A DNA stretch of 64,000 nt from Microbacterium sp. LKL04 (GTDB lineage: Bacteria; Actinomycetota; Actinomycetes; Actinomycetales; Microbacteriaceae), in NCBI RefSeq assembly GCF_900102005.1, contig NZ_LT627736.1, forward strand, positions 2,418,001-2,482,000, written 5' to 3'. This document shows positions 19,536 to 48,552 of the stretch, piece after piece; within the stretch, counting starts at the first letter, position 1; each line of letters begins with the position of its first letter. The translations under genes were made by a program, and so were the position numbers. The notes under the pieces are model-generated. The model had not been told where the DNA came from. It saw only the letters and a program-made list of their open reading frames with translations, and made no database searches.

Positions 19536-19617
19536 CGCGGATGCAAGAGATCCGAAGCGACACGCGGGTGAAGGATGCCGCGGCTCGGCGCGTCGCGCGC
19601 GATCTATTGCATCCGCG
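19536..19617. repeat. 82-bp palindromic intergenic element, copy 1
   Basis: Outer arms of 17 bases at 19536-19552 (CGCGGATGCAAGAGATC) and 19601-19617 (GATCTATTGCATCCGCG) are inverse to each other with one mismatch. Inner arms GCGACACGC (19557-19565) and GCGCGTCGC (19589-19597) also pair with one mismatch. The centre is variable. Two further copies of exactly 82 bp lie at 36159 and 48471. It sits between a small membrane gene and the copA stop. Confidence 0.85.
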
Positions 19618-19654
19618 TACAGAGGCGCCCCGCACCGCGCGCACAGCGCCGCCC

Positions 19655-21829
19655 TCAGCCCCGCCCGACCGCCTGGAACCCGCGCAGGCGCAGGCTGTTG
19701 GTCACCACGAACACCGACGACAGTGCCATGGCCGCCGCGGCGACGAGCGGGTTCAGCAGCGCGGCCATCGCGAGCGGGATCGCGGCGACGTTGTACGCGA
19801 ACGCCCAGAACAGGTTGCCCTTGATGACGCCCAGGGTCCGCCGCGCGAGACGCACCGCGTCGGCGACGACGATCGGGTCGCCCGAGACGACGGTGATGTC
19901 GGATGCCGCGATCGCCGCGTCCGTGCCGCCGCCCATCGCGATCCCGAGGTCGGCGGCTGCGAGCGCCGCGGCGTCGTTGACACCGTCGCCCACCATCGCG
20001 ACGACCCGGCCCTCGCCCTGCAGACGGCGGATCGTGTCGAGCTTGCCCGCCGGTGTCACGCCGGCCTCGACGCGGGAGATCCCGACCTCAGCGGCGACCC
20101 GAGCTGCAGAGGACTCGGTGTCGCCGGTCAGCAGGATCGGCTCGAGCCCGAGCTCGCGGAACCGCGCGATCGCTTCCCCGCTCGACGACTTGACCGTGTC
20201 AGCGACCATGATCGCGCCGAGGTACACACCGTCGCGCGCGACCGCCACGACCGTCCCTTCGGGCAGATCGGCGGGCACGGCAACGGCCCACTGCTCGGCG
20301 AGCCACGACGGCCGGCCGGCGACGACCGCCGCCCCCTCGACGACACCCTGCACACCGAATCCGGCGTGCGACTGGAACGACTCGACGCGCCCCGTCGGCG
20401 CCGCCGCGACGATCGCGCGGGCGACGGGGTGCTCCGACCCCGATTCGACGGCCGCCGCGACCGAGAGAAGCTCCTCGCGGGACACGCTCGCAGGCAGCAC
20501 GTCGGTCACGCTCATGCGTCCGGTCGTGACGGTGCCCGTCTTGTCGAGCACGATCGTGTCGACGGTACGGGTCTGCTCGAGCACCTGCGGACCACGGATG
20601 AGGATGCCGAGCTGCGACCCGCGCCCGGTTCCCACCAGCAGGGCGGTCGGGGTCGCGAGCCCGAGCGCGCACGGGCAGGCGATGATGAGCGTCGCGACGG
20701 CAGCGGTGAAGGCGAGCTCCCACGGCGCACCGGCGATCGCCCAGCCGACGAGGGCGGCGAGCGCGAGCACGATCACGACGGGCACGAAGACGGCCGAGAC
20801 GCGGTCGGCGAGGCGCTGCACCTCGGCCTTGCCGGTCTGCGCCTCCTCCATGAGCCGCCGCATCCGCGCCAGTTCCGTGTCGGCGCCGACGCGGGTGACC
20901 TGCACCTCGAGTCGACCACCGACGTTGATCGTCGCGCCGACGACGCGGGACCCTTCAGCGACCTCGACGGGCATCGACTCACCCGTGAGCATGCTCGCGT
21001 CGACGCTGCTCATCCCTGCGGTGACGAGTCCGTCCGACGGGATCTTCTCGCCGGGGCGGACGACGACCGTGTCGCCGACGACGAGCTGCGAGACCGGCAC
21101 GCGGGTCTCGACGCCGTTCTGCAGCTTTGCGGCATCCGTCGCCCCGAGTTCGAGCAGCGCGCGCAGCGCCTCGGACGACGCCCGCTTCGCGCGAGCCTCG
21201 ATGTAGCGGCCCGTGAGGATGAAGACCGTGACGAGCGCGGCGACCTCGAGGTAGATCTCGTGTCCGCCCGCCTGCGGCGCACCGACGAGCGTGAAGGTCA
21301 TGGTCATGCCGGGCATGCCCGCGCCGCCGAAGAAGAGGGCGTACAGCGACCAGCCGAACGACGCGATGACGCCGAGGCTGATGAGGGTGTCCATCGTCGC
21401 CGCGCCGTGGCGCAGGTTGACGGCGGCGGCACGGTGGAACGGCCACGCGCCCCACACCGCGACCGGAGCCGCGAGGGTCAGCGCGAGCCACTGCCAGTTC
21501 TCGAATTGCAGCGGCGGGATCATCGACATCAGCGCGACGGGCAACGAGAGGGCCGCGCTGATCAGCAGCCGCTGGCGGAGCGGCGTGGTTTCGTCCTCCG
21601 CCTCGGCCGCCCCGGGCTCAGGGGCCGGCACCGCCGCGGCGTACCCTGCGGCTTCGACGGTCGCGATCAGCTGCGCCGTCTCGACGCCCTCGGCACGGAC
21701 GCGCGCCTTCTCGGTCGCGTAGTTGACGGATGCCTCGACGCCCGGGAGCTTGTTGAGTTTCCGCTCGATCCGGGTGGCGCACGAAGCGCAGGTCATCCCC
21801 GAGATGTCGAGCTCGACGTCGGTGCTCAC
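19655..21829 (-). CDS. copA: Copper-translocating P-type ATPase
   Basis: A 724-residue P1B-1 ATPase that exports Cu+ using ATP. Domains in order: heavy-metal-binding domain with GMTCASC (Cys14, Cys17), membrane segments, actuator TGES (282-285), ion-pathway CPC (385-387) in [11 protein letters not shown], and phosphorylation motif DKTGT (429-433). The C-terminal hinge [20 protein letters not shown] is intact. It overlaps the copZ stop by four bases and is the last gene of csoR-copZ-copA. Confidence 0.96.
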
Positions 21830-22113
21830 GCGGACACCCGGGTGTATCCGGCCTCCTCGATGGCGGCGGTCAGAGCGTCGTCGTCGAGGGGGGTCGCGCT
21901 GTGCACGGTGACGTGCGAGGTGCCGCCGGCGACGAGGTCGACGGACACGGCCTCGACACCGTCGATCTCGGAGAGCTCCTCGCGGACGCTCGCCACGCAG
22001 TGCGCGCAGGTCATACCGGTGACGAGCAGTTCTTCGTTGACGGCGGATGCCGGTGCGGCGGGCGCCCCGGATGCGGAGACGTCGGTCAGTCCGAGCTGGA
22101 TGCGGTCGGTCAT
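21826..22113 (-). CDS. copZ: Copper chaperone, heavy-metal-associated domain protein
   Basis: A 95-residue protein with one HMA domain: the metal site GMTCAHC is near 33-38 and the fold continues [24 protein letters not shown]. It carries Cu+ to CopA. A 25-residue N-terminal extension ([25 protein letters not shown]) precedes the domain, longer than in typical CopZ. The gene starts 17 bases after csoR and overlaps copA. Confidence 0.92.
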
Positions 22114-22130
22114 GGTGTGTCCTCCAGGGT

Positions 22131-22412
22131 TCAGGAGCGGACGAGACGCGCGATCGCGTCGTTCGCCTCGCGGATCTTCTCGGCGGCGACCTGGCCGCCC
22201 TCGGCGCTCGCCTCGGCGACGCAGTGACTCAGGTGGTCGGAGAGCAGCGAGAGCGCGACGGTCTCGAGCGCCTTCGTCGCGGCGGAGACCTGCGTGAGGA
22301 TGTCGATGCAGTACTTGTCCTCGTCGACCATGCGCGCGATGCCGCGCACCTGGCCTTCGACCCGGCGCAGTCGCTTCTGCAGGTCATCCTTGTTCGCGTC
22401 GTACCCGTTCAT
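22131..22412 (-). CDS. csoR: Copper-sensing repressor CsoR
   Basis: A 93-residue helical repressor of the CsoR/RcnR family. The metal ligands of the Cu-type are present: Cys in [10 protein letters not shown] (near 34), His in [10 protein letters not shown] (near 59) and Cys four residues later. The N-terminal basic helix [19 protein letters not shown] binds DNA. It should repress its own operon until Cu+ binds. A palindrome immediately upstream at 22424-22438 is the likely site. Confidence 0.94.
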
Positions 22413-22423
22413 GACAGATACGG

Positions 22424-22438
22424 TACCCCCCTAGGGTA
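22424..22438. promoter_or_regulatory. Candidate CsoR operator
   Basis: TACCC at 22424-22428 and GGGTA at 22434-22438 flank CCCTA, giving TACCCCCCTAGGGTA. G/C-tract palindromes of this form flanked by AT are typical CsoR sites. It lies 12 bases upstream of the csoR start codon and 22 bases before the stop of the GntR gene. Confidence 0.7.
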
Positions 22439-22459
22439 TGTGCGTCAAGGGCCCGCGGG

Positions 22460-23164
22460 TCAGACTTCCTCGACCTCGCCGGAGACGAGCGTCAGGTGCT
22501 CCCGGGCCGAGGCCTCCGCGTCGGCACCGCGCCCGTCGTGGATCGCCCGAGCCGTCGCGAGGTGGGCCTCGAGGGTGCCGACCCGCGGCATCCCGGGCGT
22601 CAGCCCTCGCACCGATCGGCCGCGCAGGATCTCGGCGATGGGGTCGCCGAGCTTCTCGAACAGGGCGTTGCCCGAGGCTCTCAGCAGAAGCCGGTGGTAG
22701 GCGATGTCGGCGTCGAGGTACTCGTCCGAGTCGCCGAGACCCTGATTCCCGAGGTCGCTGAGCAGCGTCGCCCACCGCACGAGCTCGTCGCGCTCGGCAT
22801 CCCCCGCCCGTTCCGCGGCCAACCGGGCCGCGACGGGTTCGACGGCGACGCGCAGGTCGGTCAGTTCGATCAGCACGTCGCGCCGTCGGGGGCTGTCGAG
22901 CGACCACTCGATGATGTCCGCGTTCAAGATGTCCCACTCCGCCTGAGGCCGGACGACGAGCCCGACACGGCGACGCGAGGTGAGCAGCCCGTGCGCCTCG
23001 AGGACCCGGACCGCTTCGCGCACGACCGTCCGCGACGCGGTGAACGACTCTTCGAGACCGGCGAGGGTCAGCCCGGTTCCGGGCGGCAACTCACCACCGA
23101 CGATCCTCCGGCCGAGGGTCTCGACGATGTGAGCGTGGGATGCGGTGGTGGCAGGCGTGGGCAT
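22460..23164 (-). CDS. FadR/GntR-type transcriptional regulator of gluconate genes
   Basis: A 234-residue regulator. N-terminal winged helix (VETLGRRIVGGELPPGTGLT through RTVVREAVRVLEAHGLLTSR) and C-terminal FCD ligand-binding domain (LIELTDLRVAVEPVAARLAAE, then DIAYHRLLLRASGN with the metal-binding His and Asp). It is divergent from the gluconate permease, which makes gluconate or idonate the likely effector. The start at 23164 is ATG. Confidence 0.9.
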   Translation of the reverse strand: MPTPATTASHAHIVETLGRRIVGGELPPGTGLTLAGLEESFTASRTVVREAVRVLEAHGLLTSRRRVGLVVRPQAEWDILNADIIEWSLDSPRRRDVLIELTDLRVAVEPVAARLAAERAGDAERDELVRWATLLSDLGNQGLGDSDEYLDADIAYHRLLLRASGNALFEKLGDPIAEILRGRSVRGLTPGMPRVGTLEAHLATARAIHDGRGADAEASAREHLTLVSGEVEEV

Positions 23165-23195
23165 CGGTGTCCTTCGTAGCGATGCTCACGCTACC

Positions 23196-23229
23196 GCGAA
23201 AAGTACGATCATTCGCTTGCGAAAGGTAC
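23196..23229. promoter_or_regulatory. Candidate operator between gntR-like gene and gntP
   Basis: The phrase GCGAAAAGTAC at 23196-23206 recurs as GCGAAAGGTAC at 23219-23229, 23 bases apart, about two helical turns. Between them TTCGC-TT-GCGAA (23212-23223) is a palindrome. The cluster lies midway between divergent starts 23164 and 23303, and is a plausible site for the FCD regulator. Confidence 0.55.
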
Positions 23230-23302
23230 TACTTATGTGGCACCGTGGGCTCGCTGCCGGGAATGGCCCCGGCACCGGGACGATTCACTGGAGAACACAC
23301 CC

Positions 23303-24685
23303 ATGGACGAGTGGACGCAAACACTCGGAGCGCTACCGCTCCTTCTGATCGCGGCCGGAGCGGTCGCCCTGATCCTGCTGCTCATCATCAAGGTCCGCAT
23401 GCACGCGTTCATCGTGCTCGTGCTGGTCTCGCTGCTGACGGCACTGGCCACCGGCATCCCCGTCGGCAGCATCGGCAAGGTGCTGATCGACAGCTTCAGC
23501 TCGACCGTCGGCACGGTCGCACTTCTCGTCGGCTTCGGAGCGATGCTCGGCGCGCTCATCGAGAGCTCGGGCGGCGCCCGCGTGCTGGCCGAGAAGATGG
23601 TCTCGATCTTCGGTGAGAAGCGCGCCGCCATCGCGCTGAGCGTCGCCTCGCTCCTCATGGGCTTCCCGATGTTCTTCGACGCCGGCCTCGTCGTCATGCT
23701 GCCGATCATCTTCGCCGTGGCGCGCCGCATCGGCGGCAAGCACATGCTGCTCTACGGCATCTCGGCCGCCGCCGCGTTCTCGGTCATGCACGTCTTCGTG
23801 CCGCCGCACCCCGGCCCCATCACCGCGAGCGAGACCTTCGGAGCGAACCTCGGCCTCGTCCTGCTCATCGGTCTCGTCGTCGCGATCCCCACCTGGTACC
23901 TCAGCGGGTACCTCTGGGCGCGCTTCATCGACCGCCGCATCCCGCTCGCCATCCCCCGTCTGTTCGGCGAGGACGTCGAACCCACGAACCCGCCCAAGGC
24001 CGGCACCGTCATCGGCGTCATCGCGATCCCGCTGGTCCTGATCCTCCTCAACACCGGTTCTGCGGCGCTCGTCTCGTCGGGAGCCGTCGACGGCACCGCC
24101 GTCTGGGTGCAGGCGCTCGGCCTCATCGGCACGAGCCAGGTCGCCCTGCTGATCGCCGTCCTCGTCGCCCTGTTCGTCCTCGGCACCCGCCGCGGTGTCG
24201 GCGGCAGCGCGCTCGACAAGATCGTCGAGTCCTCGCTCGGACCGATCTGCTCGGTCGTCCTCATCACCGGCGCGGGTGGCATGTTCGGTGGCGTCCTGCG
24301 CGCCTCGGGCATCGGTGATGCGCTGTCGGATTCGCTCGCCTCGATCGGCGTCCCGGTCATCTTCGCCGCCTACCTGATCGCGCTCCTCCTCCGCGTGGCG
24401 CAGGGTTCGGCGACCGTCGCCCTCGTGACGGCCGCGGGGCTCGTCGCACCCGCCGTTCTGTCGAGTGGATTCAATGCCCTGCAGGTCGCATGTATCGTCC
24501 TCGCCACCGCCGCCGGCTCCGTCTTCGCGGGTCACGTCAACGACTCCGGTTTCTGGCTCGTCGGTCGCCTCATGGGCATGGACGTCAAGACGACCCTCAA
24601 GACCTGGACCGTGCAGCAGGCCCTCGAGTCGGTCGTAGGCTTCCTCATCGTGCTCGGCATCTTCGGCCTGGTGTCCCTTGTCTGA
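23303..24685 (+). CDS. Gluconate:H+ symporter, GntP family
   Basis: A 460-residue membrane permease with about twelve to fourteen segments, importing gluconate or a related sugar acid. GntP family phrases are clear: LLVGFGAMLGALIESSGGARVLAE, FFDAGLVVMLPIIFAVAR, HVFVPPHPGPITASE and GHVNDSGFWLVGRLMGM. The start is ATG 23303, behind GGAGA; a longer frame from 23237 was rejected. Its last codons overlap the start of the next gene, so the operon is translationally coupled. Confidence 0.94.
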   Translation: MDEWTQTLGALPLLLIAAGAVALILLLIIKVRMHAFIVLVLVSLLTALATGIPVGSIGKVLIDSFSSTVGTVALLVGFGAMLGALIESSGGARVLAEKMVSIFGEKRAAIALSVASLLMGFPMFFDAGLVVMLPIIFAVARRIGGKHMLLYGISAAAAFSVMHVFVPPHPGPITASETFGANLGLVLLIGLVVAIPTWYLSGYLWARFIDRRIPLAIPRLFGEDVEPTNPPKAGTVIGVIAIPLVLILLNTGSAALVSSGAVDGTAVWVQALGLIGTSQVALLIAVLVALFVLGTRRGVGGSALDKIVESSLGPICSVVLITGAGGMFGGVLRASGIGDALSDSLASIGVPVIFAAYLIALLLRVAQGSATVALVTAAGLVAPAVLSSGFNALQVACIVLATAAGSVFAGHVNDSGFWLVGRLMGMDVKTTLKTWTVQQALESVVGFLIVLGIFGLVSLV

Positions 24686-25445
24686 CGTCTTCGACCTCAC
24701 CGGCCGTCTGGCCCTCGTGACGGGATCATCGCGGGGGCTCGGCCAGAGCCTCGCCGTGGGCCTCGCCGAGGCCGGCGCCCGCGTCATCGTCCACGGCCGC
24801 GATGCCGAGGCCGTCGAGCGGAGCGCCGCCGCGATCGCCGAGCGCACCGGCATCCGTCCCGAGGCAGCCCTGTTCGACGTCACGGATGCCGCGGCTGTCG
24901 AGGAGGCGATCGGCGACCTCGTCGAGCGAGTCGGCGCCCCCGACATCCTCGTCAACAACGCCGGCATCCAGCGGCGGGCGCCCTTCGCGGAGTTCCCCGT
25001 CGCGGACTGGGATGCCGTCATCTCGAGCAACCTGTCGAGCGCCTTCTACGTGTCGCGTTTCGTGGCTCCCGGCATGATCGCGCGCGGCTCCGGCAAGATC
25101 ATCAACATCGCCTCGGTCCAGTCGATGCTCGGGCGCCAGACCATCGCCCCGTACGCCGCGAGCAAGGGCGGTATCGCCCAGCTCAGTCGTGGGATGGCCG
25201 CCGACCTGGCGCGCCACGGCATCCAGGTCAACACGCTCTCGCCCGGCTACTTCGCCACCGAGATGAACGCGGCGCTCGTCGCCGACGCGGACTTCTCGGA
25301 CTGGGTCGCCCAGCGCACCCCGGCCGGCCGCTGGGGTGACGTCGCGGAGCTGCGCGGACCGCTCGTGTTCCTCGCCTCGGCGGCGAGCGACTTCGTGAAC
25401 GGCCAGAACCTGTTCGTCGACGGCGGCATGACCGCGGTCGTCTGA
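24678..25445 (+). CDS. idnO: SDR, gluconate 5-dehydrogenase type
   Basis: A 255-residue short-chain dehydrogenase, starting at TTG 24678 inside the end of gntP. The motifs are complete: TGSSRGLGQSLAVGLAEAG (cofactor), NNAGIQRRAPF, IINIASVQS (Ser) and YAASKGG (Tyr, Lys). It resembles gluconate 5-dehydrogenase, which interconverts 5-keto-gluconate and gluconate. Together with idnD and the kinase it converts idonate to 6-phosphogluconate. The exact substrate is inferred from context. Confidence 0.85.
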   Translation: MSDVFDLTGRLALVTGSSRGLGQSLAVGLAEAGARVIVHGRDAEAVERSAAAIAERTGIRPEAALFDVTDAAAVEEAIGDLVERVGAPDILVNNAGIQRRAPFAEFPVADWDAVISSNLSSAFYVSRFVAPGMIARGSGKIINIASVQSMLGRQTIAPYAASKGGIAQLSRGMAADLARHGIQVNTLSPGYFATEMNAALVADADFSDWVAQRTPAGRWGDVAELRGPLVFLASAASDFVNGQNLFVDGGMTAVV

Positions 25446-25462
25446 CCCGAGGAGAGACACAC

Positions 25463-26485
25463 ATGGACGCAGTCGTCATCGGCGGCAAGCTCGACCTCAC
25501 GGTCGCGGACCATCCCGTCCCCGAGCCGGACGCGGGACAGGTCCGGATCCGGGTGGGATACGTCGGGATCTGCGGATCCGACCTGCACTACTACTCCGAG
25601 GGGGCGAACGGCGCGTTCGTTGTCACCGAGCCCTTGGTTCCCGGGCACGAGCTGTCGGGCTGGGTCGACCTCGACCCGTCCGGTCTGCTGTCGCCGGGGA
25701 CGCCCGTGACGGTGCATCCCGCGCGCTTCGGTCCCGAAGGGTCGACTCCCGTCGAGCCGCACCTGCGTCCCGGAGGCAGCTACCTCGGCAGCGCCGCGAC
25801 GACCCCGCACACGCAGGGCGCGATGAGCGACTACCTGGTGGTGGATGCCGGCATGATCCGGACCCTGCCCTCGGACCTGCCCGTGCGCCGCGCCGTCCTG
25901 GCCGAGCCCCTGGCCGTCGCCTTTCACGGCGCGGGCCGGTCGGGCTCCCTCGCCGGCGCGCGGGTGCTCGTCTGCGGTGCGGGTCCGATCGGCTTGCTCG
26001 CTGTCGTCGCTGCACAGGAGGCGGGAGCGGCGAGCGTCGAGATCACCGACCTGCTGGCCGAGCCGCTCGAGCGGGCACGCGCGCTCGGCGTCGACGGCGT
26101 CTGGCGGGTGGGTGAGGACGAGGTGCCCTCCGACGTCTACGACGTCGTCCTCGAGTGCTCGGGAGCCGCACCCGCCGTGTCGTCGGCGATCGCCGCCGTC
26201 CGCCGCCGCGGAACCGTCGTGCAGATCGGGATGCTGCCCAACCAGCCGGTCGGTGTGAACATCGCCCCGCTCATCTCGAAAGAAGCCACACTCACCGGCG
26301 CCTTCCGCTTCCTCGATGAGATCGACGAGGCGATCGAGGTCCTGAGCCGCCGCCCCGAGATCGAGGCCGTCATCACCCACGAGTTCCGCCCCGATGCGGC
26401 CATCGAAGCGTTCGAGACCGCACGGCGCCCCGCCGAGAGCAGCAAAGTCGTCGTGACCCTGACCGACGTGGAGGTGGCGTCGTGA
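25463..26485 (+). CDS. idnD: Zinc-type alcohol dehydrogenase, L-idonate 5-dehydrogenase type
   Basis: A 340-residue medium-chain dehydrogenase that would oxidise L-idonate to 5-ketogluconate. Catalytic zinc ligands are present (CGSDLHYY near 37 and GHE near 62), and the Rossmann motif is VLVCGAGPIGLLAVVAA. The lobe with four structural-zinc cysteines is not evident; its place is occupied by ARFGPEGSTPVEPHLRPGG. The gene has a GAGGAGAG Shine-Dalgarno and lies between idnO and the kinase. Confidence 0.85.
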   Translation: MDAVVIGGKLDLTVADHPVPEPDAGQVRIRVGYVGICGSDLHYYSEGANGAFVVTEPLVPGHELSGWVDLDPSGLLSPGTPVTVHPARFGPEGSTPVEPHLRPGGSYLGSAATTPHTQGAMSDYLVVDAGMIRTLPSDLPVRRAVLAEPLAVAFHGAGRSGSLAGARVLVCGAGPIGLLAVVAAQEAGAASVEITDLLAEPLERARALGVDGVWRVGEDEVPSDVYDVVLECSGAAPAVSSAIAAVRRRGTVVQIGMLPNQPVGVNIAPLISKEATLTGAFRFLDEIDEAIEVLSRRPEIEAVITHEFRPDAAIEAFETARRPAESSKVVVTLTDVEVAS

Positions 26486-26982
26486 GCACCGCACCCCGCA
26501 TTGTCGTCATGGGTCCGAGCGGGTCGGGCAAGACCGCCGTCGGAGCCGCTCTCGCCGTCGATCTCGGCGTGGACTTCGTCGACGCCGACGATCTGCACCC
26601 GCAGGCCAATGTCGAGAAGATGGAGGCGGGCCACCCCCTCGACGACGAGGATCGCGCACCCTGGCTCGACATCGTCGGACAGACCCTCGCCGAGGCGCCC
26701 GGTCTCGTCGTCGCGTGCTCCGCATTGGCCCGCCGCTACCGCGACCGGATCCGCGCCGCCGCGCCTGACGTTCGCTTCGTCGAACTCGTCGTGTCGCCCG
26801 AGGAGCTGGACCGCCGGATGCGTTCGCGTCAGCACTTCATGCCGCCGGCGCTCCTCGCTTCGCAGCTCGCGACCCTCGAGCACCTCGGCGACGACGAGCC
26901 CGGGGTCGCCGTCGAGAACGTCGGCCGCATCCTCGATGTCGCGCGCCGCGCGCGCATCGCGCTCGACGAGCCGGCCGGCTGA
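26482..26982 (+). CDS. Gluconokinase
   Basis: A 166-residue P-loop kinase (GPSGSGKT at 11-18) of the GntK/IdnK family, which phosphorylates gluconate to 6-phosphogluconate. The lid and substrate features DADDLHP, NVEKMEAGHPLDDEDRAPWL and CSALARRYRDRIR are typical. It starts with GTG and overlaps idnD by four bases. It completes the five-gene gluconate/idonate cluster and feeds the pentose phosphate route. Confidence 0.94.
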   Translation: MSTAPRIVVMGPSGSGKTAVGAALAVDLGVDFVDADDLHPQANVEKMEAGHPLDDEDRAPWLDIVGQTLAEAPGLVVACSALARRYRDRIRAAAPDVRFVELVVSPEELDRRMRSRQHFMPPALLASQLATLEHLGDDEPGVAVENVGRILDVARRARIALDEPAG

Positions 26983-27012
26983 GGCGAGCGGAACGCAACC
27001 CCTCGCCCGGAA

Positions 27013-27947: not shown

Positions 27948-27954
27948 TCCGCAC

Positions 27955-27978: not shown

Positions 27979-27993
27979 TTCGTCGTCGCCGCA

Positions 27994-36099: not shown

Positions 36100-36158
36100 C
36101 ACAGCCCGGGAGGGGCGGATGCCGCGGCTCGAGCACCGGCATCCGCTCCTCCGGCGTG

Positions 36159-36240
36159 CGCGGATGCAAGAGATCGGGCACGACACCCCGCCACCAGGCC
36201 TCGAGACACGGCGTGTCGGCCACGATCTATTGCATCCGCG
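36159..36240. repeat. 82-bp palindromic intergenic element, copy 2
   Basis: Left arm CGCGGATGCAAGAGATC at 36159-36175 and right arm GATCTATTGCATCCGCG at 36224-36240 are identical to those of copy 1. The interior differs, but the inner pair CGACAC / GTGTCG is kept (36181-36186 and 36213-36218). It lies between the convergent chaplin-like gene and rplI, beside the rplI terminator. Confidence 0.85.
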
Positions 36241-36296
36241 AACCCGCACGCCCGCATCCGCGAACTCCAACACGCCCGCACACCCGCCCCAAACGC

Positions 36297-41848: not shown

Positions 41849-43181
41849 CGGTGGCCAGGACCGACCGGCGCGGACGGACGACCGGGTCCTGATAGCGCGC
41901 CGGGGTGACCGTGATGTCGCTGCCGTCGTCGGACCACGACTCCGCTCCGCGACGGCCGAGCATCGTGCGGGTGGAGAGGATCCCCCGCACGAGCGGCGCC
42001 CCGACCGCGAGCGCGATCGATCCGAGAACCGAGCGATCCTCGGCGCCGAGCACGGCCTTGCGCTGCCAGGCGTCGTGGAGTGCGCCCCCTCGTGCCGCCG
42101 GGACGTACCTCGGGACGAGGACACCGCGCCGGCGCTGATCGATGAGGTGCTCGACGTCCGACCACCAGGTCGATTCGCTCGGGTCGTGGAAGTAGTTGTC
42201 GGCGAGCCACCCCGGATGGGGGTGCCGGAACCGACGCGCGATGACGTCGTCCGCCTCACCCTGCAGACCGCTGCCGACGAAGACCGTGTTGAGGTGCGTC
42301 TTCGAGACGCCGAAGGTGGTCAGCGCGATGACCGGTACGCCCATGGCCATGGCCTCGATCGCCGCCGTGGAGCTGATCGTCACGAGCCCCTCGGCGGTCT
42401 CGAGGGCGCGCGACATCGGCTCGTGCGAGAACACGAGGTTGTCGGGCCGGTCGCGGAGCAGGCCGGTGAGTCCGGTGCGCTCGAAGTGCGTCTCGGCCTC
42501 GCCGAGCTCGGGCCGGGAGCGCAGTTTGACCACCACGCGCCGCGTGGGGTCGGCGAGCGCGGCCGACCGCAGGATCCCGGCGAGCCGGCTGCGTTCCGCC
42601 GGCTCGTGGGGCACGATCGCCTGCGCGGCGAACACGAGGTCCGTACCGCCGCCCGCCCCGCGGGTCGGCCGGGCGAATGGCAGGGTCGCGAGACTCGGAC
42701 GCATGTCGAGGCCGAGGCGATCCGCCAGTTGCGCGAAGGCGCGTTGTTCGCGTCGCGAGTGGACCACCATGAGGTCGCTGTAGCGGCGGTAGAGCGCCGC
42801 TCCGCGCTGCGCGGGGATCGACATGCCCGGAAGTCCCGAGACGACGACCGGTCGAGGGGTGACCCGGTCGATCTGCCGCATGATCAGTCGCACGAACGGG
42901 CCGCGCCCGCCGACCACGACGACGTCGGGTCGATCCGCCGACAGCCACCCGGCGAGGGCGTCGTAGGCGAGACGCGTGACCGCTTCGGGACGGATGCCGG
43001 TGCCCGCCAGAGCCGCATGCTCCTGCGCGACGCTCACCACGAGGGGCGTCTGCACGAGCACCAGGTGCGGGTCGACCTCCGGCGCGGAGTCGATGAGCGC
43101 CGCCGACCACTTCACGAAGGAGTCCGCGTCGGCGATCGCGACGACGCGCAGGTCCGGTGACCGGTCGGTGCTCATGGTCAT
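41838..43181 (-). CDS. DUF6716-like putative glycosyltransferase
   Basis: A 447-residue cytoplasmic protein with two Rossmann-like halves (GT-B appearance). The second half contains FSHEPMSRALETAEGLVTISSTAAIEAMAMGVPVIALTTFG, the sugar-nucleotide binding type of region. It matches actinobacterial DUF6716 putative glycosyltransferases by pattern. The ATG at 43181 overlaps the neuB stop by four bases; a second ATG lies two codons later. Last gene of the glycan locus. Confidence 0.8.
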   Translation of the reverse strand: MTMSTDRSPDLRVVAIADADSFVKWSAALIDSAPEVDPHLVLVQTPLVVSVAQEHAALAGTGIRPEAVTRLAYDALAGWLSADRPDVVVVGGRGPFVRLIMRQIDRVTPRPVVVSGLPGMSIPAQRGAALYRRYSDLMVVHSRREQRAFAQLADRLGLDMRPSLATLPFARPTRGAGGGTDLVFAAQAIVPHEPAERSRLAGILRSAALADPTRRVVVKLRSRPELGEAETHFERTGLTGLLRDRPDNLVFSHEPMSRALETAEGLVTISSTAAIEAMAMGVPVIALTTFGVSKTHLNTVFVGSGLQGEADDVIARRFRHPHPGWLADNYFHDPSESTWWSDVEHLIDQRRRGVLVPRYVPAARGGALHDAWQRKAVLGAEDRSVLGSIALAVGAPLVRGILSTRTMLGRRGAESWSDDGSDITVTPARYQDPVVRPRRSVLATVID

Positions 43182-44050
43182 GCCGGGACGCGGCGCAGCT
43201 TCGCCATGGGCGCCAGTTCGCCCTCGTAGATGCGCTTGACGCCGTCGCCGAGGGCCATCTCGATGACGCGGATGTCGCGGACGAGATGCGCGAGACCGGT
43301 GGGCTCGAGCGATGCGGCGTGATCGGAGCCCCACATCGTGCGGTCGAGCGTGATGTGACGCTCCACCGCGACGGCGCCGATCGCGACGGCGGCGAGGGAG
43401 ATCTGCAGGCCGCGTTCGTGTCCGGAGTAGCCGACGGGGATCCCCGCGTAGCGGTCGCGCAGCGAGGCGATCATCTTGATGTTCGCCTCCTCCGGTTCCA
43501 TCGGGTAGGTCGAGGTGGCGTGCATGAGCACGGTGCGGTCGGTACCGAGGACGTCGAGCGCGCGGTCGATCTGCTCGATCGTCGACATGCCGGTCGAGAG
43601 GATGACCGGCTTGCCGGTGGCACGGAGTGCTTCGAGCAGCTCGATGTCGGTGAGACTCGCCGAGGCCACCTTGTGGGCGACGACGCCCAGGTCCTCGAGG
43701 AAGTCGACGCTCGGGACGTCCCACGGGGACGCGAACCAGTCGAGCCCTCGCATGGTCGCGTGGTCGCCGATCTCGATGTACTGGTCGCGGTCGAACTCGA
43801 CCCGGTGACGGTACTCGAGGTAGGTCATCGTGCCCCACGGCGTCTCGCGGAGGACGTCGCGCATGTGCGCTGGAGTGGCGATCTCGGGCGTGCGCTTTTG
43901 GAACTTCACCGCATTCGCACCGGCATCCGCAGCGACGTCGATGAGCCGCTTGGCGAGGGCGACGTCGCCGTTGTGGTTCAGGCCGATCTCGGCGATGACG
44001 TACACGGGGTGCCCGCCGCCCAGTACGTGGCTTCCGATGGTCACCGTCAT
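43178..44050 (-). CDS. neuB: NeuB-family nonulosonic acid synthase without SAF domain
   Basis: A 290-residue TIM-barrel synthase that condenses phosphoenolpyruvate with a hexose or its phosphate. Conserved sites: VIAEIGLNHNGD, STGMST, TSTYPMEPEEANIKMI, GYSGHERG and VERHITLDRTMWGSDHAASL. It ends right after the barrel; the usual C-terminal antifreeze-like SAF domain (about 60 residues) is missing. It lies between the NeuA-HAD gene and the DUF6716-like gene. Confidence 0.9.
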   Translation of the reverse strand: MTVTIGSHVLGGGHPVYVIAEIGLNHNGDVALAKRLIDVAADAGANAVKFQKRTPEIATPAHMRDVLRETPWGTMTYLEYRHRVEFDRDQYIEIGDHATMRGLDWFASPWDVPSVDFLEDLGVVAHKVASASLTDIELLEALRATGKPVILSTGMSTIEQIDRALDVLGTDRTVLMHATSTYPMEPEEANIKMIASLRDRYAGIPVGYSGHERGLQISLAAVAIGAVAVERHITLDRTMWGSDHAASLEPTGLAHLVRDIRVIEMALGDGVKRIYEGELAPMAKLRRVPA

Positions 44051-44098
44051 GACGGATCCTTTCGTCGATGCTGACCCTCAGCGTGGTTCGCGACGGTG

Positions 44099-44117
44099 AC
44101 GGGGGAATGAACCCCGT
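44099..44117 (-). terminator. Short hairpin between neuA-HAD and neuB
   Basis: ACGGGG at 44099-44104 pairs with CCCCGT at 44112-44117 around GAATGAA. It is in the 106-base gap between the neuA stop and neuB start. Either a weak terminator or a processing site; the gap may also hold a neuB promoter. Confidence 0.35.
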
Positions 44118-44156
44118 GTGGCGGGCACCGGGCGGCTGGCTGTCGGATGCGTGCGG

Positions 44157-45308
44157 TCAGCGCGCCGCGAGGATGCGGTCGGCCAGCTCTCGGACGGCGC
44201 CGTCACCGCCGCAGCGGCCGAGCACGATCCGGGCAGCCGCGATCACCGCGGGGTGCGCGTCGGCCACCGCAACCGGCCATCCGACGAGGGCCATCGCCGC
44301 CAGGTCGTTCATGTCGTTGCCGAGATAGGCGGTCTCCGTCAGATCGACATCCCGATCCTGCGCCCACCGGCGCAGGACGGATGCCTTGTCCTCGACGCCG
44401 TGGATGACCTCGACACGCAGCTTCTCGGCGCGCGCCCGGACCACGGGGTTCTGCTCCGTGGAGAGGATCAGCACGGGCACGCTCGCACGACGCAACAGGG
44501 CGACGCCCATCCCGTCGGAGCGGCTCACGCGCACGTGCTCGGTGCCGGCGGCATCCACCCATGCGCTGTCGTCGGTGTGCACACCGTCGAAGTCGGTCAC
44601 GAGCGCGGTGGCCGCCACCGCCTCGGGCGAATCGAGAAGGGGGGCGAGCGCCTGGGCGGTCCCCAGCTGAGCCGGATCGTCGATCTCGATCGCGGTCGCC
44701 TCGGGCACCGTCACGATCTCGGTGCGTCCGAAGAAGCGGTGTCGCGCCCCGCGGAACCCCGCGGTCGCGAACACGTAGAACGCCCCGGTCTCGACGAAGT
44801 GGGGCTCGCGGTCCTGCCGGCGAGGTCGATGCGCGGCGTCGTGACCGATGGCGGCGGCGGCACCGTCGGCATCCCGCTGCCACACGAACTCGTAGCTCTC
44901 CCGCGCCGAGAACACGCTGTCGGCTCTTCCGTCGCGGACGGCGGTGACCGCCTCGGCGAGCGGACCTGCGGGGAGGAAGGGACTCGTCGCCTGCAGGAAC
45001 GCGGTCACGCGGGGAGCGATGCCGTCGGCGGCGAGCACGTCGAGCGCGTGCAGGAGCGCGCTCTCGGAGCTGGCCGTGTCTCCCGAGAGATCCGCGGGGC
45101 GGGCGACGACGCGCGCGCCCGCGGCACGGGCTGCGGAGGCGATGGCGTCGTCGTCGGTCGACACGACGACGAGGTCGATGACACCGGTGGCCCGCGCCGC
45201 GCGCACCGCCCGGGCGACGAGGGGGATGCCGCCGACCCGGGCGACGTTCTTGCCCGGAACCCCCTTCGACCCGCCGCGGGCGGGGATGACGGCGACCGTC
45301 TCGACCAT
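44157..45308 (-). CDS. NeuA-type cytidylyltransferase fused to a HAD phosphatase
   Basis: A 383-residue two-domain protein. Residues 1-225: CMP-nonulosonate synthetase (AVIPARGGSKGVPGKNV, QATSPFLPAGPLAEAV, ETGAFYVF). Residues 235-383: KdsC-like HAD phosphatase with motif I DFDGVHTDD (nucleophile Asp239, Asp241) and motif IV GNDMND. The fusion suggests the sugar is made as a 9-phosphate, dephosphorylated and then activated with CTP in one protein. It ends two bases before the polysialyltransferase-like gene's stop side, i.e. directly follows it in transcription. Confidence 0.9.
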   Translation of the reverse strand: MVETVAVIPARGGSKGVPGKNVARVGGIPLVARAVRAARATGVIDLVVVSTDDDAIASAARAAGARVVARPADLSGDTASSESALLHALDVLAADGIAPRVTAFLQATSPFLPAGPLAEAVTAVRDGRADSVFSARESYEFVWQRDADGAAAAIGHDAAHRPRRQDREPHFVETGAFYVFATAGFRGARHRFFGRTEIVTVPEATAIEIDDPAQLGTAQALAPLLDSPEAVAATALVTDFDGVHTDDSAWVDAAGTEHVRVSRSDGMGVALLRRASVPVLILSTEQNPVVRARAEKLRVEVIHGVEDKASVLRRWAQDRDVDLTETAYLGNDMNDLAAMALVGWPVAVADAHPAVIAAARIVLGRCGGDGAVRELADRILAAR

Positions 45309-45310
45309 GC

Positions 45311-46663
45311 TCACTCTCCTCGCAGGGCGCGCCACGCCCGTGCACTGCGGCGCCGGGCGCCGCGCAGGATCAGTTCCACTTCGGCGACCCGAGTGGCGCC
45401 CCCGCGGGATCCGAGCCGACGGGCGAAGAACCCCGGACGCCGTCCGCCGGGGAGTCCGAGCGAACTGAGCCGGGCGCGAGGGACGTACCGGTCCCGCTCC
45501 TGAGGGGATGCCGCGGCGAGGAACTCCTCGGCCCTCGCGCGCAGCGGCGCGGCGTTCTCCGGCTGCATGGCATAGCCGACCGCGTCGACGAGGTGCTGCA
45601 GACTCTCTCCCCGGTACGGCGAATCGGTGCGGGTGAGCGCATCGATGATGGTCACGGGGATGCGGTTGCCGTTCTCGAACGGGGTGAGTCGGTGGAGGAG
45701 CACCTCGGTGCCGACGGAGGCGATGGGCAATCCCGTCAGCGCGTGCAGAGTCGGCAGCGCGGTGGAGAACCCCGCGACGGCGCCGACGAACGGAACGCGC
45801 AGCGCGAGGACTTCGGCGGGTGCGTCGCCGCGGAACGCCCGGAACGCCACACCGCGCTCCGCGGCATGGGCGGCGAGGTCGTCGATGAGGGCGGGGGCAG
45901 CCGACGGGTGCGGTTTGAAGACGATGGTCTCCGGCTCCCAGGCGAGTGCGCGGTCGATCATGTCGCGCTGCATCCGCCGTTCCTCGTCGGCCGAGACGAG
46001 CTTCAGGGCCGAGAGGTATTGGCCGAGCACGAGCACGGGGCGCGGCACGTCGGCGAGCTCGTCGATCGCCGGGTCGAGAGTCGCCCGGGCCACGTCGTCC
46101 ACGACGGCGCGGAACGAGGCGATGCCGACGGGGGCTCGCGTCGTGCCGGCGAACAGCAGCGGCTCGACCCCGGGGACGGTGTCGGCGTACACGACGCCCG
46201 TCACGCGTCTCGCGACCGCGGGCGGCCACCGGTCGCGCAACGGTGAGTACGTCATCAGGCCGTCGCCGATGATCGACACCGGTGCTCCCGCGAAGACGTC
46301 GATGAACACCCGCGACGGCGCGACCTGCGGACTCTGCAGGTAGAGCTCGACGCGGTCTCCGTCGATCCTCCACGCCTGCCGCAGCAGACGCTCGAGCACG
46401 GCAGCCTCCGCGACGGTCACCTGCCAGTGCGACGGGCGCTCCGGGGCGAGCAGCGCATTGAGGTCGATGACGAGATCGAACCGGTCGCGGAGAGTCGCGA
46501 GATGGGCGGCGTCGACGATGCCCTCGCCGACCTCGGGGATGATCGCCGCATTCACCGCGACCAGGATGCGGGCCTCGCCCGATGCCGGGATGGCACCGGC
46601 ATCCATTCCTGCGACGGCCGTCATCAGCCCGTACGCGGAGTTCACGACGAAGATCTGCGTCAT
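45311..46663 (-). CDS. Polysialyltransferase-family (PF07388-like) glycosyltransferase
   Basis: A 450-residue protein beginning MTQIFVVNSAYGLMTAVAGMDAG. The family's catalytic features are present: the HP motif in FKPHPSAAPALIDD and the serine motif in VAGFSTALPTLHAL, plus a helix-rich C-terminus. Bacterial homologues polymerise sialic acid. Overlaps the GT2 gene by four bases and is followed by neuA after two bases, so all three are coupled. Confidence 0.85.
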   Translation of the reverse strand: MTQIFVVNSAYGLMTAVAGMDAGAIPASGEARILVAVNAAIIPEVGEGIVDAAHLATLRDRFDLVIDLNALLAPERPSHWQVTVAEAAVLERLLRQAWRIDGDRVELYLQSPQVAPSRVFIDVFAGAPVSIIGDGLMTYSPLRDRWPPAVARRVTGVVYADTVPGVEPLLFAGTTRAPVGIASFRAVVDDVARATLDPAIDELADVPRPVLVLGQYLSALKLVSADEERRMQRDMIDRALAWEPETIVFKPHPSAAPALIDDLAAHAAERGVAFRAFRGDAPAEVLALRVPFVGAVAGFSTALPTLHALTGLPIASVGTEVLLHRLTPFENGNRIPVTIIDALTRTDSPYRGESLQHLVDAVGYAMQPENAAPLRARAEEFLAAASPQERDRYVPRARLSSLGLPGGRRPGFFARRLGSRGGATRVAEVELILRGARRRSARAWRALRGE

Positions 46664-47637
46664 GCGGCGCGGACCTCGCGAACGAGGCGGGCGAGGATGC
46701 GACGACGCCGGTCCGACAGGCGCTGCAGTGCCGAGTCGATCTGGTCCGGCGGGATGGCACGCAGCAGATCCCGGATGCCGCTGCGCAAGGCCGTGCGCTC
46801 CGAGGTCGCCATCGCTCGAGCGCGGAAGAGGTGGTACGCGCACACCGACATGGTCGTCGTCGCGATCTTGGGGAGGAACCGCTCCGCGTCGTGGTCGTCT
46901 TGCACGACGCGGATCGCTTCGGCGAAGGCGGGCAGGAAGTCGAGCTGTCGGCGATCGAGGATCTGCGTGAGCGACGTGGTCACGCCGCGGCGGTAGAGGA
47001 TCGCCGGGGCGTCGACGATCGCGAAGGTGCTCGCGTGCAGGTGCAGCCGCCAGATCCAGGGCCGGTCCTCCGCCGTGAACAGGCCCGGCTCGAAGTGTGC
47101 GAGCCCCTCGTCGAGGACGCGGCGGTGGAACATGCCCGCCCAGGCATAGGGGTAGTCGACCATCGTGGTCTCGTCCGCCGGCAGGATGGCGTCGCGTGGC
47201 GCGAGCACGCGCTCCCGCCACGCGAACGGGGCGCGCATGAGCCGCCGGCGACCGTCGGTGTCGGTCACGTGATCGGTGCGGACGAAGTCGCATTCCAGCC
47301 GGCGCATCGACGCGACGAGGCTCTCGAGGCGGTCCGGGTGCATCCAGTCATCGCCGTCGACGAAGCAGAAGAAGTCCGTGTCCACTTTCTCGAGTCCCTG
47401 GTTGCGTGCGGCGGCGAGACCGACCGAGTGCGCGTTCGAGAGGATCTCGACGTGGGGCATGTCCCGGGCGAAGTGCTGCACCTGCACGCGAGTGTCGTCC
47501 GTCGAGCCGTCGTCGATGACGACGAGCCGCAGCCGATCCGAGTTCCGGAACTGCCGGGCCAGCGTCGTGACGGTCGTCCCGATGTAGGGCCCGGCATCCT
47601 TCGCCGGCAGGATGACGGTCACGATCGGCGAGGACAC
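46660..47637 (-). CDS. GT2 family glycosyltransferase
   Basis: A 325-residue GT-A enzyme starting at GTG 47637 (VSSPIVTVILPAKDAGPYI). Motifs: VVIDDGSTDDTR (nucleotide and metal), FVDGDDWMHPDRLE (DXD-like) and EDRPWIWRLH (acceptor ED). It transfers a sugar at the membrane. First gene of the locus. No Shine-Dalgarno is evident and the start lies in an inverted repeat (47632-47665). A start further upstream at 47718 has no support. Confidence 0.88.
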   Translation of the reverse strand: MSSPIVTVILPAKDAGPYIGTTVTTLARQFRNSDRLRLVVIDDGSTDDTRVQVQHFARDMPHVEILSNAHSVGLAAARNQGLEKVDTDFFCFVDGDDWMHPDRLESLVASMRRLECDFVRTDHVTDTDGRRRLMRAPFAWRERVLAPRDAILPADETTMVDYPYAWAGMFHRRVLDEGLAHFEPGLFTAEDRPWIWRLHLHASTFAIVDAPAILYRRGVTTSLTQILDRRQLDFLPAFAEAIRVVQDDHDAERFLPKIATTTMSVCAYHLFRARAMATSERTALRSGIRDLLRAIPPDQIDSALQRLSDRRRRILARLVREVRAA

Positions 47638-47665
47638 GCGTCGATACAAACAAGGAGGCGTGTCC
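47632..47665 (-). repeat. Inverted repeat over the start of the GT2 gene
   Basis: GGACACGC at 47632-47639 and GCGTGTCC at 47658-47665 pair perfectly around 18 bases. The GTG start codon (47635-47637) is in one arm. On the mRNA it would hide the start; on DNA it could be an operator. Confidence 0.5.
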
Positions 47666-47839
47666 GGGAGGTGACCCCCGGGTGAACGCTGCCGGTCGCG
47701 GCGGCCCGGGACTAGCACACGGCTCGATCCCGGTCCACTGGCTCAGCCGCCCGCGACGGCTCGGCTATCGTGGTCGATCGTCGGGGGGCGCTTCGTCCTG
47801 GTGCGTGTCCCCGCTCGTCGCACACCAAGGAGACCTCAC

Positions 47840-48379
47840 ATGTCGCGCAAGACCACCCTGTCGACCGGCTTCGCCGTCGCCACGATCGCCCTCTTCGCCC
47901 TGACCGGCTGCGGTTCGGCCGAGTCGGGTACCACCACCGACCCGGCGCCGGTCAGCTCCGCCCCCGCCGAGCAGTCGCCCTCCGCCGAAGCCGAGGCGCC
48001 CGCGGGCGACCAGAGCGCGGCCGACGCCTGCAAGATCCTGCAGACCGAGCTGAGCGAACTCAACACCGAGGTCAACGGTGCCAGCGGCGAGCTCTCCTCC
48101 GCCGTGCAGTCGGGTGACACGTCGGGTGCACGCGACATGTTCACGAAGATCGGCACCCGCATCGACGAGATCTCGGGCGAGATCACGAACCCCGAGGTCT
48201 CCGAGGCCTACCAGGCGTACGCATCGGCCTGGGACGAGTTCGAGAAGGTCTTCGTCAAGGTCAGCGACGCCGTCGACGCGAAGGACAACGACGCCCTCCA
48301 GGCGGCAGCCAACGAGCTGACCGGCGGCATCACGGGCTTCACCGACGCCTCGAAGAAGATCAGCGAAGCCTGCAGCTGA
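47840..48379 (+). CDS. Hypothetical lipoprotein
   Basis: A 179-residue protein. Signal peptide with lipobox LTGC (near 20-23), then a linker rich in Pro, Ala, Ser and Glu, then a helical domain of about 110 residues (CKILQTELSELNTEVNGAS, ISGEITNPEVSEAYQAYASAWDEFEKVF) with two cysteines at its ends (ACK, EAC) that may bridge. No family is recognised. AAGGAG lies seven bases before ATG 47840; TATCGT at 47766-47771 could be a -10. Confidence 0.8.
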   Translation: MSRKTTLSTGFAVATIALFALTGCGSAESGTTTDPAPVSSAPAEQSPSAEAEAPAGDQSAADACKILQTELSELNTEVNGASGELSSAVQSGDTSGARDMFTKIGTRIDEISGEITNPEVSEAYQAYASAWDEFEKVFVKVSDAVDAKDNDALQAAANELTGGITGFTDASKKISEACS

Positions 48380-48395
48380 TCACCGCACACAGCCG

Positions 48396-48428
48396 GAACG
48401 CCCCTCGTCCCTCGGACGGGGGGCGTTC
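48396..48428 (+). terminator. Terminator of the lipoprotein gene
   Basis: GAACGCCCC at 48396-48404 pairs with GGGGCGTTC at 48420-48428, extended by CGTCC (48406-48410) with GGACG (48414-48418) around CTC. It begins 17 bases after the stop. TCGCG follows rather than a T run. Confidence 0.7.
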
Positions 48429-48470
48429 TCGCGTGCGGGGCGTGCTCGCCGGGGTCGCGTGCGAGGCGTC

Positions 48471-48552
48471 AGCGGATGCAACAGTTCGCGCGCGACACGC
48501 CGCGCGTCCGGCCCTCACCGCGGCGCGTCGCCTCGGATCCCTTGCATCCGCA
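48471..48552. repeat. 82-bp palindromic intergenic element, copy 3
   Basis: Left arm AGCGGATGCAACAGTTC at 48471-48487 and right arm GATCCCTTGCATCCGCA at 48536-48552, more diverged than copies 1 and 2 but of identical total length. Inner arms GCGACACGCCGC (48492-48503) and GCGGCGCGTCGC (48520-48531) pair with one mismatch. It lies between convergent lipoprotein and HxlR genes, after the terminator. Confidence 0.8.

What the first reader, a model, noticed from the sequence alone, without database searches (positions are those of the whole stretch)
19536..48552. A family of 82-bp palindromic intergenic elements (three copies)
Copies at 19536-19617, 36159-36240 and 48471-48552 have exactly the same length. 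Outer arms of 17 bases (consensus CGCGGATGCAAGAGATC and its inverse) and inner arms (GCGACACG.. / ..CGTGTCGC) are conserved, while the centre differs freely. Changes in arms are mostly balanced on both sides, so the fold is under selection, not a protein. All three lie outside genes, two of them beside convergent gene ends. This resembles REPIN-type mobile hairpins or a structured RNA, and I do not know a described family with this sequence. No RAYT transposase is in the window.
Basis: seen in the sequence. Interest (0 to 1): 0.78.

Follow-up and report, generated by a model that had tools for sequence, protein, structure and literature searches.

The report
Palindrome repeats with their own nuclease
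The three hairpin-shaped DNA repeats belong to a family of small, apparently mobile palindromes that is tied to one resident gene for an unstudied, probably DNA-cutting protein, an arrangement like the known REPIN/RAYT pairs but with an unrelated enzyme.

Summary
The three copies are real. The unit is 88 bp (GTN + the 82 bp + NAC). The 2.92-Mb genome (Microbacterium, near M. oleivorans) holds 21 copies, all 88 bp. Arm changes are not compensatory, so RNA structure is not supported. No RAYT was found. The core CGACACGCCG-N18-CGGCGTGTCG occurs in 118 of 198 sampled genus genomes.

The densest cluster brackets one gene: a predicted AbiEi-type helix-turn-helix fused to a DUF559 (Vsr-like PD-(D/E)XK) nuclease. 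In the 30 best loci of this family plus this genome's two paralogues, 28 of 32 have the core on both sides. Paralogue 3 has its own palindrome family, with dispersed copies. In a class-wide sample 17 of 27 loci share flanking repeats above every control; among stand-alone DUF559 genes of Proteobacteria, Deinococcus and cyanobacteria, 9 of 24.

Reading: REPIN-like palindromes served by a dedicated non-HUH nuclease. The association is shown. Mobility is supported by element-limited similarity, local clustering and presence/absence between relatives, but no insertion was caught. Cutting is inferred. I found no description in print.

The parts
   Evidence: sequence, alignment A1, profile hit E 7.0e-17
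19533..19568 (+). left half-site of copy 1: GT tip, outer arm with GATGCAA, inner arm CGACACGCGG
   Evidence: columns 1-36 of A1
19585..19620 (-). right half-site of copy 1 (inverted); between the half-sites lies a 16-base free centre
   Evidence: columns 53-88 of A1
36156..36243 (.). element copy 2, 88 bp, at convergent gene ends
   Evidence: (E 1.3e-16)
36156..36191 (+). left half-site of copy 2
   Evidence: A1 columns 1-36
36208..36243 (-). right half-site of copy 2 (inverted)
   Evidence: A1 columns 53-88
48468..48555 (.). element copy 3, 88 bp, at convergent gene ends
   Evidence: (E 7.6e-16)
48468..48503 (+). left half-site of copy 3
   Evidence: A1 columns 1-36
48520..48555 (-). right half-site of copy 3 (inverted)
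   Evidence: A1 columns 53-88
52339..52367 (.). site without an element, orthologous to an element-bearing site in Microbacterium oleivorans NBRC 103075 (G070:C12:105218)
   Evidence: flank BLAST: gap 27 here, 34 expected if empty, 122 if present; alignment

Best explanation
The 88-bp elements are short palindromic, apparently mobile DNA that works like REPINs. Each is a pair of about 36-bp inverted half-sites: a genome-specific outer arm and a genus-wide inner core (CGACACGCCG), with the two core arms held 18 bases apart. They depend on a resident gene that is kept at one chromosomal place and is itself bracketed by the same elements. That gene encodes a predicted DNA-binding (AbiEi-type winged helix) plus DUF559 (Vsr-like PD-(D/E)XK) nuclease. 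Most likely two nuclease molecules bind the two half-sites, nick the element (perhaps extruded as a hairpin during replication), and a copy is set down nearby by host repair or replication. SHOWN: 21 fixed-length copies; bracketing of the gene; distinct palindromes beside each paralogue; match of dispersed arms to the gene's own flanks; similarity that stops at the element edge; local relatedness; presence/absence between relatives. INFERRED: that the protein binds and cuts the element, that this copies it, and the single-strand or repair route.
For: Copies: 21 of 88 bp. Bracketing: core on both sides within 400 bp in 28 of 32 loci (30 best of the genus plus two paralogues of this genome), shuffles giving 0.04 hits per locus (bounds of two contig-end loci corrected with a 450-bp limit, still 28). 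In 80 named loci, both sides in 53 of 80 and no core hit inside the gene. Flank-to-flank similarity exceeds the maximum of 225 within-locus controls in 66 of 75 named loci, of 20 controls in 14 of 20 further paralogues, and of 27 controls in 17 of 27 class-wide loci, 14 of 21 outside the genus. Cognacy: dispersed arms rank the gene flanks of their own genome in the top 3 of 31 in 20 of 24 cases. Paralogue 3 of this genome is bracketed by another palindrome, which is dispersed in pairs with start distance 54 (nine elements read). In G338, of another family in the class, the half-site forms four palindromes, two bracketing the gene, control 0. Genomes with a close homologue (best E < 1e-70): 51 of 53 carry the core against 67 of 145 others, Fisher p 6e-12 (from; not corrected for ancestry). 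Unit of copying: nine pairs of nearby copies share 56-84 of 88 bases (eight of nine at least 66), their flanks 12-21 of 50; pairs nearer than 10 kb are more alike than distant ones, 0 of 5000 permutations. The gene's neighbourhood with pabC is kept in 53 of 80. Nuclease residues D203, E213, D215, H220 and D229 are invariant or nearly so in 35 sequences.
Against: No insertion was caught: sites without an element in relatives are diverged, and at least two of six aligned are half-lost elements. No target-site duplication. No binding or cutting is shown. 4 of 32 loci lack the core on one or both sides (L114, L120, L122, L137; L114 has another palindrome family). 27 of 80 named loci lack it on at least one side (some are paralogues with other palindromes, some are cut by contig ends). 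10 of 27 class-wide and 15 of 24 stand-alone DUF559 loci do not pass the maximum of their controls. A plain inverted-repeat score on both sides passes the 95% control in only 48 of 75, 8 of 20 and 13 of 27 loci. 67 of 145 genomes without a close homologue still carry the core, so more distant paralogues or decay after gene loss must be invoked. Arms of orthologous copies are better kept than the centre but not better than the neighbouring DNA. The AbiEi domain is a transcriptional-regulator fold.
Confidence: 0.65

Rival explanations
1. The elements are operators of the AbiEi-like protein: it represses itself through the copies beside its gene, and the dispersed copies are its regulon. Nothing moves.
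For: The N-terminal domain matches AbiEi_4, a transcriptional regulator. Half-sites vary like protein-binding sites. The window copies are intergenic.
Against: Two of the three window copies lie between convergent gene ends, away from promoters. Elements lie on both sides of the gene. Nearby copies are alike and stop being alike at the element edge. Stand-alone DUF559 genes of 112-134 aa, too short for the helix-turn-helix fusion, are also bracketed by shared repeats in nine loci of other phyla.
Confidence: 0.15
2. The elements are ancient passive palindromes kept by host functions such as nucleoid protein binding or replication; the nuclease gene merely tolerates or repairs palindromes and sits in repeat-rich intergenic DNA.
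For: In 6 orthologous pairs with G134, outer arms are 0.87 and inner arms 0.90 identical against 0.68 for the centre. Many copies are at orthologous sites.
Against: Cognacy: paralogues have their own palindrome sequences, and dispersed arms track the local gene. The core was not found in 80 of 198 genus genomes, so it is not an essential chromosome part.
Confidence: 0.12
3. A structured RNA or transcription-terminator family.
For: Palindromic shape; two of three window copies at convergent ends.
Against: No covariation, fewer compensatory changes than shuffles. The best consensus fold keeps 14 pairs with a positive (unfavourable) covariation term. No Rfam match in the window at the gathering threshold.
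Confidence: 0.03
4. Non-autonomous copies (MITEs) of a conventional insertion sequence whose transposase is elsewhere.
For: Inverted repeats, exact unit, local copies.
Against: No target duplication. The gene found bracketed by the elements is DUF559. PF01797 absent from G000. Other transposase families were not searched genome-wide, and the neighbours compared were not annotated for transposases.
Confidence: 0.05

Closest known systems
REPIN / RAYT (TnpA-REP) systems (PMC3116915; also PMC2817692, search listing only)
   Same: Short extragenic inverted half-sites, clusters, several flavours in one genome, each flavour beside its own single-copy partner gene that largely follows the species tree (passages of PMC3116915).
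   Different: The partner here is a DUF559 (PD-(D/E)XK) protein, not a Y1 HUH transposase; PF01797 is absent from G000. No conserved GTAG tag in the alignment; half-sites are about 36 bp with 18 bases between the core arms.
CGTC-tagged REPs (PMC3733652)
   Same: Dispersed small palindromes, mostly as inverted pairs, which that paper says have no dedicated transposase (abstract and passages). Palindromes preceded by CGTC or TGTC lie beside DUF559 genes in S. meliloti and N. gonorrhoeae here.
   Different: Described REPs are 20-40 bp, CGTC stems 8-9 bp, and the five phyla named for CGTC repeats do not include Actinobacteria. I did not show that the repeats are the published CGTC families.
AbiEi antitoxin / type IV toxin-antitoxin
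   Same: N-terminal AbiEi_4 domain, and database names of that kind.
   Different: A nuclease-like domain is fused to it; an AbiEii toxin partner was not looked for.
Vsr / Caulobacter VsrA (PMC12907096)
   Same: VsrA carries a DUF559 domain of the PD-(D/E)XK superfamily and its presence causes a DNA damage response in a methylase mutant (passages).
   Different: Proposed there as mismatch repair tied to cytosine methylation; words beginning palindrom- and repetitive do not occur in that paper's main text.

Membership tests
REPIN/RAYT | Y1 (HUH) REP-associated tyrosine transposase in the genome, next to the repeats | tested here: not met
   PF01797: none in G000; 1 of 38 genomes, a distant one
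REPIN/RAYT | Inverted pair of conserved half-sites with a less conserved middle, dispersed outside genes | tested here: met
   21 copies; the three window copies intergenic. For the other 18 copies my gene calls were unreliable, so their place is not established
REPIN/RAYT | Partner gene flanked by its own flavour of repeat | tested here: met
   28 of 32 loci both sides; cognacy 20 of 24 in the top 3 of 31. The partner, however, is DUF559
REPIN/RAYT | Conserved GTAG tetranucleotide tag | tested here: not met
   Invariant G1 and nearly invariant T2, then variable bases
CGTC-REP | CGTC tag, 8-9 bp stem, 4-5 base loop, CCA tail | tested here: not met
   88-bp dyads with a 16-base free centre; CGTC overlaps the left edge of only some copies
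Structured RNA | Compensatory base changes | tested here: not met
MITE of an insertion sequence | Target-site duplication and same-ended transposase element | tested here: inconclusive
   No duplication; only Y1 transposases searched genome-wide
DUF559 / Vsr-like nuclease (the partner) | PD-(D/E)XK catalytic residues | tested here: met
   Pfam DUF559 28.1 bits, cut-off 20.6; D203, D215, H220, D229 invariant and E213 at least 90% in 35 sequences; that these are the catalytic residues rests on recalled knowledge of the fold; activity not tested

The most novel reading that the evidence does not exclude
DUF559 (Vsr-fold) nucleases are a second, RAYT-independent class of enzymes that drive palindromic mobile DNA. 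Each lineage-specific nuclease maintains its own palindrome family of set length, from Actinobacteria (with a fused helix-turn-helix) to Proteobacteria, Deinococcus and cyanobacteria, and these are the missing partners of REPs for which no transposase has been found.
Probability: 0.45. Interest if true: 0.95.

Novelty: new variant of a known kind. Interest (0 to 1): 0.86.

Why it matters
Short palindromic repeats are found in many bacterial genomes, and a published survey found that one large class, the CGTC REPs, has no dedicated transposase (PMC3733652). Here a gene family of largely unknown function (DUF559) is found bracketed by, and matched to, such palindromes, first in Actinobacteria and also in part of the loci checked in other phyla. 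If the nuclease drives them, it gives DUF559 a role, explains where these repeats come from, and shows that the REPIN way of life arose with an unrelated enzyme. It is testable in a soil bacterium.

Tried and rejected
RNA structure: rejected on covariation. RAYT: not found. Target-site duplication: nothing consistent at any offset tried. Gene calling with my own codon model often chose antisense frames in this 70% GC genome (for example it missed the VanZ-like frame at 18523-19125; that label is recalled), so I use it for no claim. My first flank-similarity null mixed homologous loci and was discarded for within-locus controls. Sites without elements: I hoped for precise insertions; of six aligned, at least two are half-deletions and the rest are too diverged to place a junction. 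L330 (Sphingomonas) scored high with a start set by hand but not with the annotated start and is not counted. L351 was fetched but dropped, as its DUF559 lies inside a much larger gene. Plasmid hits of the full-length protein in Tsukamurella and Actinomyces: 1 of 4 has clear flanking repeats, one is marginal, two have none. PDB profile search gave only weak hits.

Print searches (PMC library only). What I saw: PMC3733652, abstract and passages; PMC12306157, PMC12907096 and PMC3116915, passages only; all others, search listings. No title or abstract start in the listings describes DUF559 genes flanked by palindromes. Preprints and most subscription journals were not searched.
Full report
WHAT IS THERE. 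The three copies are as described. Aligning them with further copies shows that the dyad includes three more bases on each side: in the alignment of 21 the first base is always G, the second T in at least 90%, and the last always C. The unit is therefore 88 bp. The window is G000:C1:2418001-2482000 of a single-contig 2.92-Mb genome. A covariance model built from the 21 copies finds those 21 (42 hits on two strands, as it must); the next hit has E 0.002. All 21 have the same length, while the 16 central bases are free.

IT IS A DNA DYAD, NOT AN RNA. Counting pairs on 21 sequences gives 74.3% paired cells against 76.7% in shuffles and 14 double changes against 27.4. The arms vary independently, as two copies of a protein-binding half-site would. 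Rfam gives nothing at the gathering threshold in the window.

THE FAMILY. With the model, 19 of 38 genomes (own included) have hits at E <= 0.001: 17 of 23 in the genus and 2 of 15 from other families. In the 24 copies, read by eye, most share CGACACGCCG - 18 free bases (17 or 19 in a few) - CGGCGTGTCG, but outer arms differ between genomes; a few hits (L050, L056, L058, L059) do not show both core arms. The 38-base core with up to 2 mismatches is in 118 of 198 sampled genus genomes (own included), up to 64 per genome, against 0-2 for the reversed pattern; 80 genomes have none.

THE PARTNER GENE. Comparing reading frames near elements across genomes brought up a family that I followed. In this genome it is G000:432542-433348, 269 aa, with Pfam AbiEi_4 and DUF559. 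Elements at 431294, 432307 and 432439 lie on one side, 433496 and 433647 on the other: five of the 21 copies. I scored the 30 best loci of the genus plus this genome's two paralogues: 28 of 32 have the core (up to 4 mismatches) on both sides within 400 bp and 30 on at least one; shuffled loci give 0.04 hits each (two contig-end loci had wrong bounds there, corrected with a 450-bp limit and the same total). The misses are L114, L120, L122 and L137. Of 80 named loci (238 relatives found, best 80 kept; mostly Microbacterium, six of other or unnamed genera), 53 have the core (up to 3 mismatches) on both sides within 450 bp, 59 on the 5' side, 57 on the 3' side, and none inside the gene; five of these loci are cut within 450 bp of the gene by contig ends. 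In 53 of the 80 a homologue of pabC, and in 49 of pstB, lies within the stretch held, as in this genome, so the gene is mostly inherited in place (gene names recalled).

A CONTROL THAT DOES NOT KNOW THE MOTIF. I aligned the 450 bp left of the gene to the 450 bp right of it, and as control stretches farther out in the same loci. Named loci: 66 of 75 exceed the maximum of 225 controls (5 truncated loci dropped). Twenty further paralogues taken in rank order: 14 of 20 exceed the maximum of 20 controls. Class-wide sample (29 of 296 genomes had a match): 17 of 27 loci exceed the maximum of 27 controls; 6 of the 27 are of the same genus, and outside it 14 of 21 do. The shared stretches shown are mostly palindromic, roughly 55-130 bp, and differ in sequence from family to family. 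A plain inverted-repeat score on both sides is weaker: it passes the 95% control in 48 of 75, 8 of 20 and 13 of 27. An earlier null was contaminated and is not used.

COGNACY. In most loci the elements around one gene share an outer arm, and this arm differs between genomes. For 24 dispersed elements (11 of the 21 from this genome, 13 from 12 others; three lying beside a gene left out, and genomes without a scored gene locus not usable), the flanks of the own genome's gene rank in the top 3 of 31 genomes in 20 cases and first in 8; those that outrank it are often genomes with the same arm. The exceptions are G077 (rank 17), G014 (8 and 4) and G134 (4). This genome has two further paralogues. 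Number 2 (234603-235382) is bracketed by two diverged elements with the arm GCGGAGATC, which the model hits only weakly. Number 3 (1766903-1767676) is bracketed by palindromes with GCCGnnTGCAGGTTCAG. That half-site gives 15 forward and 16 reverse hits against 4 and 3 for the control, and six pairs start 54 (once 55) bases apart. Of eleven places read, nine look like elements of 71-72 bp with free centres, five of the nine with both GT and AC tips; flanks are unrelated. In G338, a genome of another family, the half-site found beside the gene occurs as exactly four palindromes with start distance 52: two bracket the gene and two are elsewhere, control 0. So these nucleases have their own palindromes of set length, as each RAYT has its REPIN flavour (passages of PMC3116915).

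GENOME-LEVEL ASSOCIATION. 186 of 198 genus genomes have a family member at E <= 1e-20. Of the 53 with a close homologue (best E < 1e-70), 51 carry the core; of the other 145, 67 do (Fisher p 6e-12). This is not corrected for shared ancestry, and the 67 show that closeness to this one protein is not needed.

SIGNS OF MOVEMENT. Nine pairs of nearby copies share 56-84 of 88 bases (eight of nine at least 66), but their flanks share only 12-21 of 50. The 17 pairs nearer than 10 kb average 70.9 identical bases against 61.6 for 193 distant pairs; 0 of 5000 permutations reach this. Between this genome, G134 and G070 many copies sit at orthologous sites, but several are present in one and missing in another, for example G070:C12:105218, missing here at window 52339-52367 and in G134. 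Of six such sites aligned, at least two are half-deleted elements, and none gives a clean insertion junction or target duplication. In six orthologous pairs with G134 arms are better kept (0.87 and 0.90) than the centre (0.68), though not better than neighbouring DNA, most of whose matches are 87-96% identical. I read this as slow turnover with selection on the half-sites; insertion itself is inferred.

BEYOND ACTINOBACTERIA. The profile's best solved relative is 3hrl, an endonuclease-like protein (E 0.12). With its segment as query, 32 plasmid-collection records hold a DUF559 match. I fetched 25 and scored 24. In 9 of 24 the flanks share repeats above the maximum of 94 controls: Azospirillum lipoferum, Sinorhizobium meliloti, three Deinococcus (aetherius, proteolyticus, psychrotolerans), two Picosynechococcus, Pseudanabaena and Neisseria gonorrhoeae. 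Two Azospirillum loci and Shinella show palindromes just upstream only, by eye in the 150 bases printed. The other twelve (two E. coli-labelled records, three Sphingomonas, Sinorhizobium sp. K101, Methylobacterium, A. brasilense MTCC4038, Deinococcus sp. NW-56, Synechocystis, Photobacterium, Lelliottia) do not pass the maximum; NW-56 passes the 95% control. The pattern CTCTCCC-N4..12-GGGAGAG occurs 29 times in the S. meliloti record (control 1), 32 times in the A. lipoferum plasmid (control 0), 9 times in Shinella (control 2), 2 times in the D. aetherius plasmid (control 0; the two gene flanks), and not at all in the Neisseria and D. proteolyticus records.

HOW IT PROBABLY WORKS. Two-domain protein: an AbiEi-like helix-turn-helix and a Vsr-fold nuclease with D203, E213, D215, H220 and D229 conserved. 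The genus-wide inner core and the lineage-specific outer arm suggest two contacts per half-site, and the constant gap suggests that the two halves are engaged together. I infer nicking and local copying through host repair or a hairpin intermediate. Operator, passive-palindrome, insertion-sequence and RNA readings are weighed above.

NOVELTY. The kind (dispersed palindromes with a dedicated bracketed gene) is known from REPIN/RAYT. The enzyme is unrelated and the defining RAYT was not found, so this is not a REPIN but seems to work like one. The published survey of CGTC REPs reports no dedicated transposase. Searches for DUF559 with AbiEi (0 papers), with flanked and inverted repeats (0), with repeat, endonuclease and palindrom- (1, unrelated), alone (14), and with REP terms gave no description in titles or abstract starts (PMC library only).

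Noticed in passing
window 36115-36146: A separate GC-rich palindrome (GCGGATGCCG...CGGCATCCGC) directly left of element copy 2; similar GCGGATGCCG motifs occur elsewhere in the window and GGCATCC/GGATGCC in the centres of some elements, perhaps another repeat family.
   Followed up: no
L142, L045, L133, L126 (loci of other Microbacterium): Elements in near-tandem series spaced about 100-280 bp beside or away from the partner gene, which suggests local serial copying.
   Followed up: partly
G000:1766808-1767913 and dispersed sites (L361-L367, L370): Another palindrome family in the same genome (71-72 bp, GCCGnnTGCAGGTTCAG arms) around paralogue 3.
   Followed up: yes
G000:1408373, 2541478, 500417 (L371-L373): Weak elements of 66-74 bp, two of them with GCGGAGAT arms, possibly copies cognate to paralogue 2; lengths not constant.
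   Followed up: partly
plasmids collection, e.g. NZ_CP119142.1, NZ_CP141089.1: Records of 2-5 Mb labelled plasmids look like whole chromosomes by their size.
   Followed up: no
L340 (Neisseria gonorrhoeae record): A DUF559 frame without annotation in the collection, bracketed by similar repeats of about 120 bp that contain CCGTCC(C/T)CTCTCCC; described only.
   Followed up: partly
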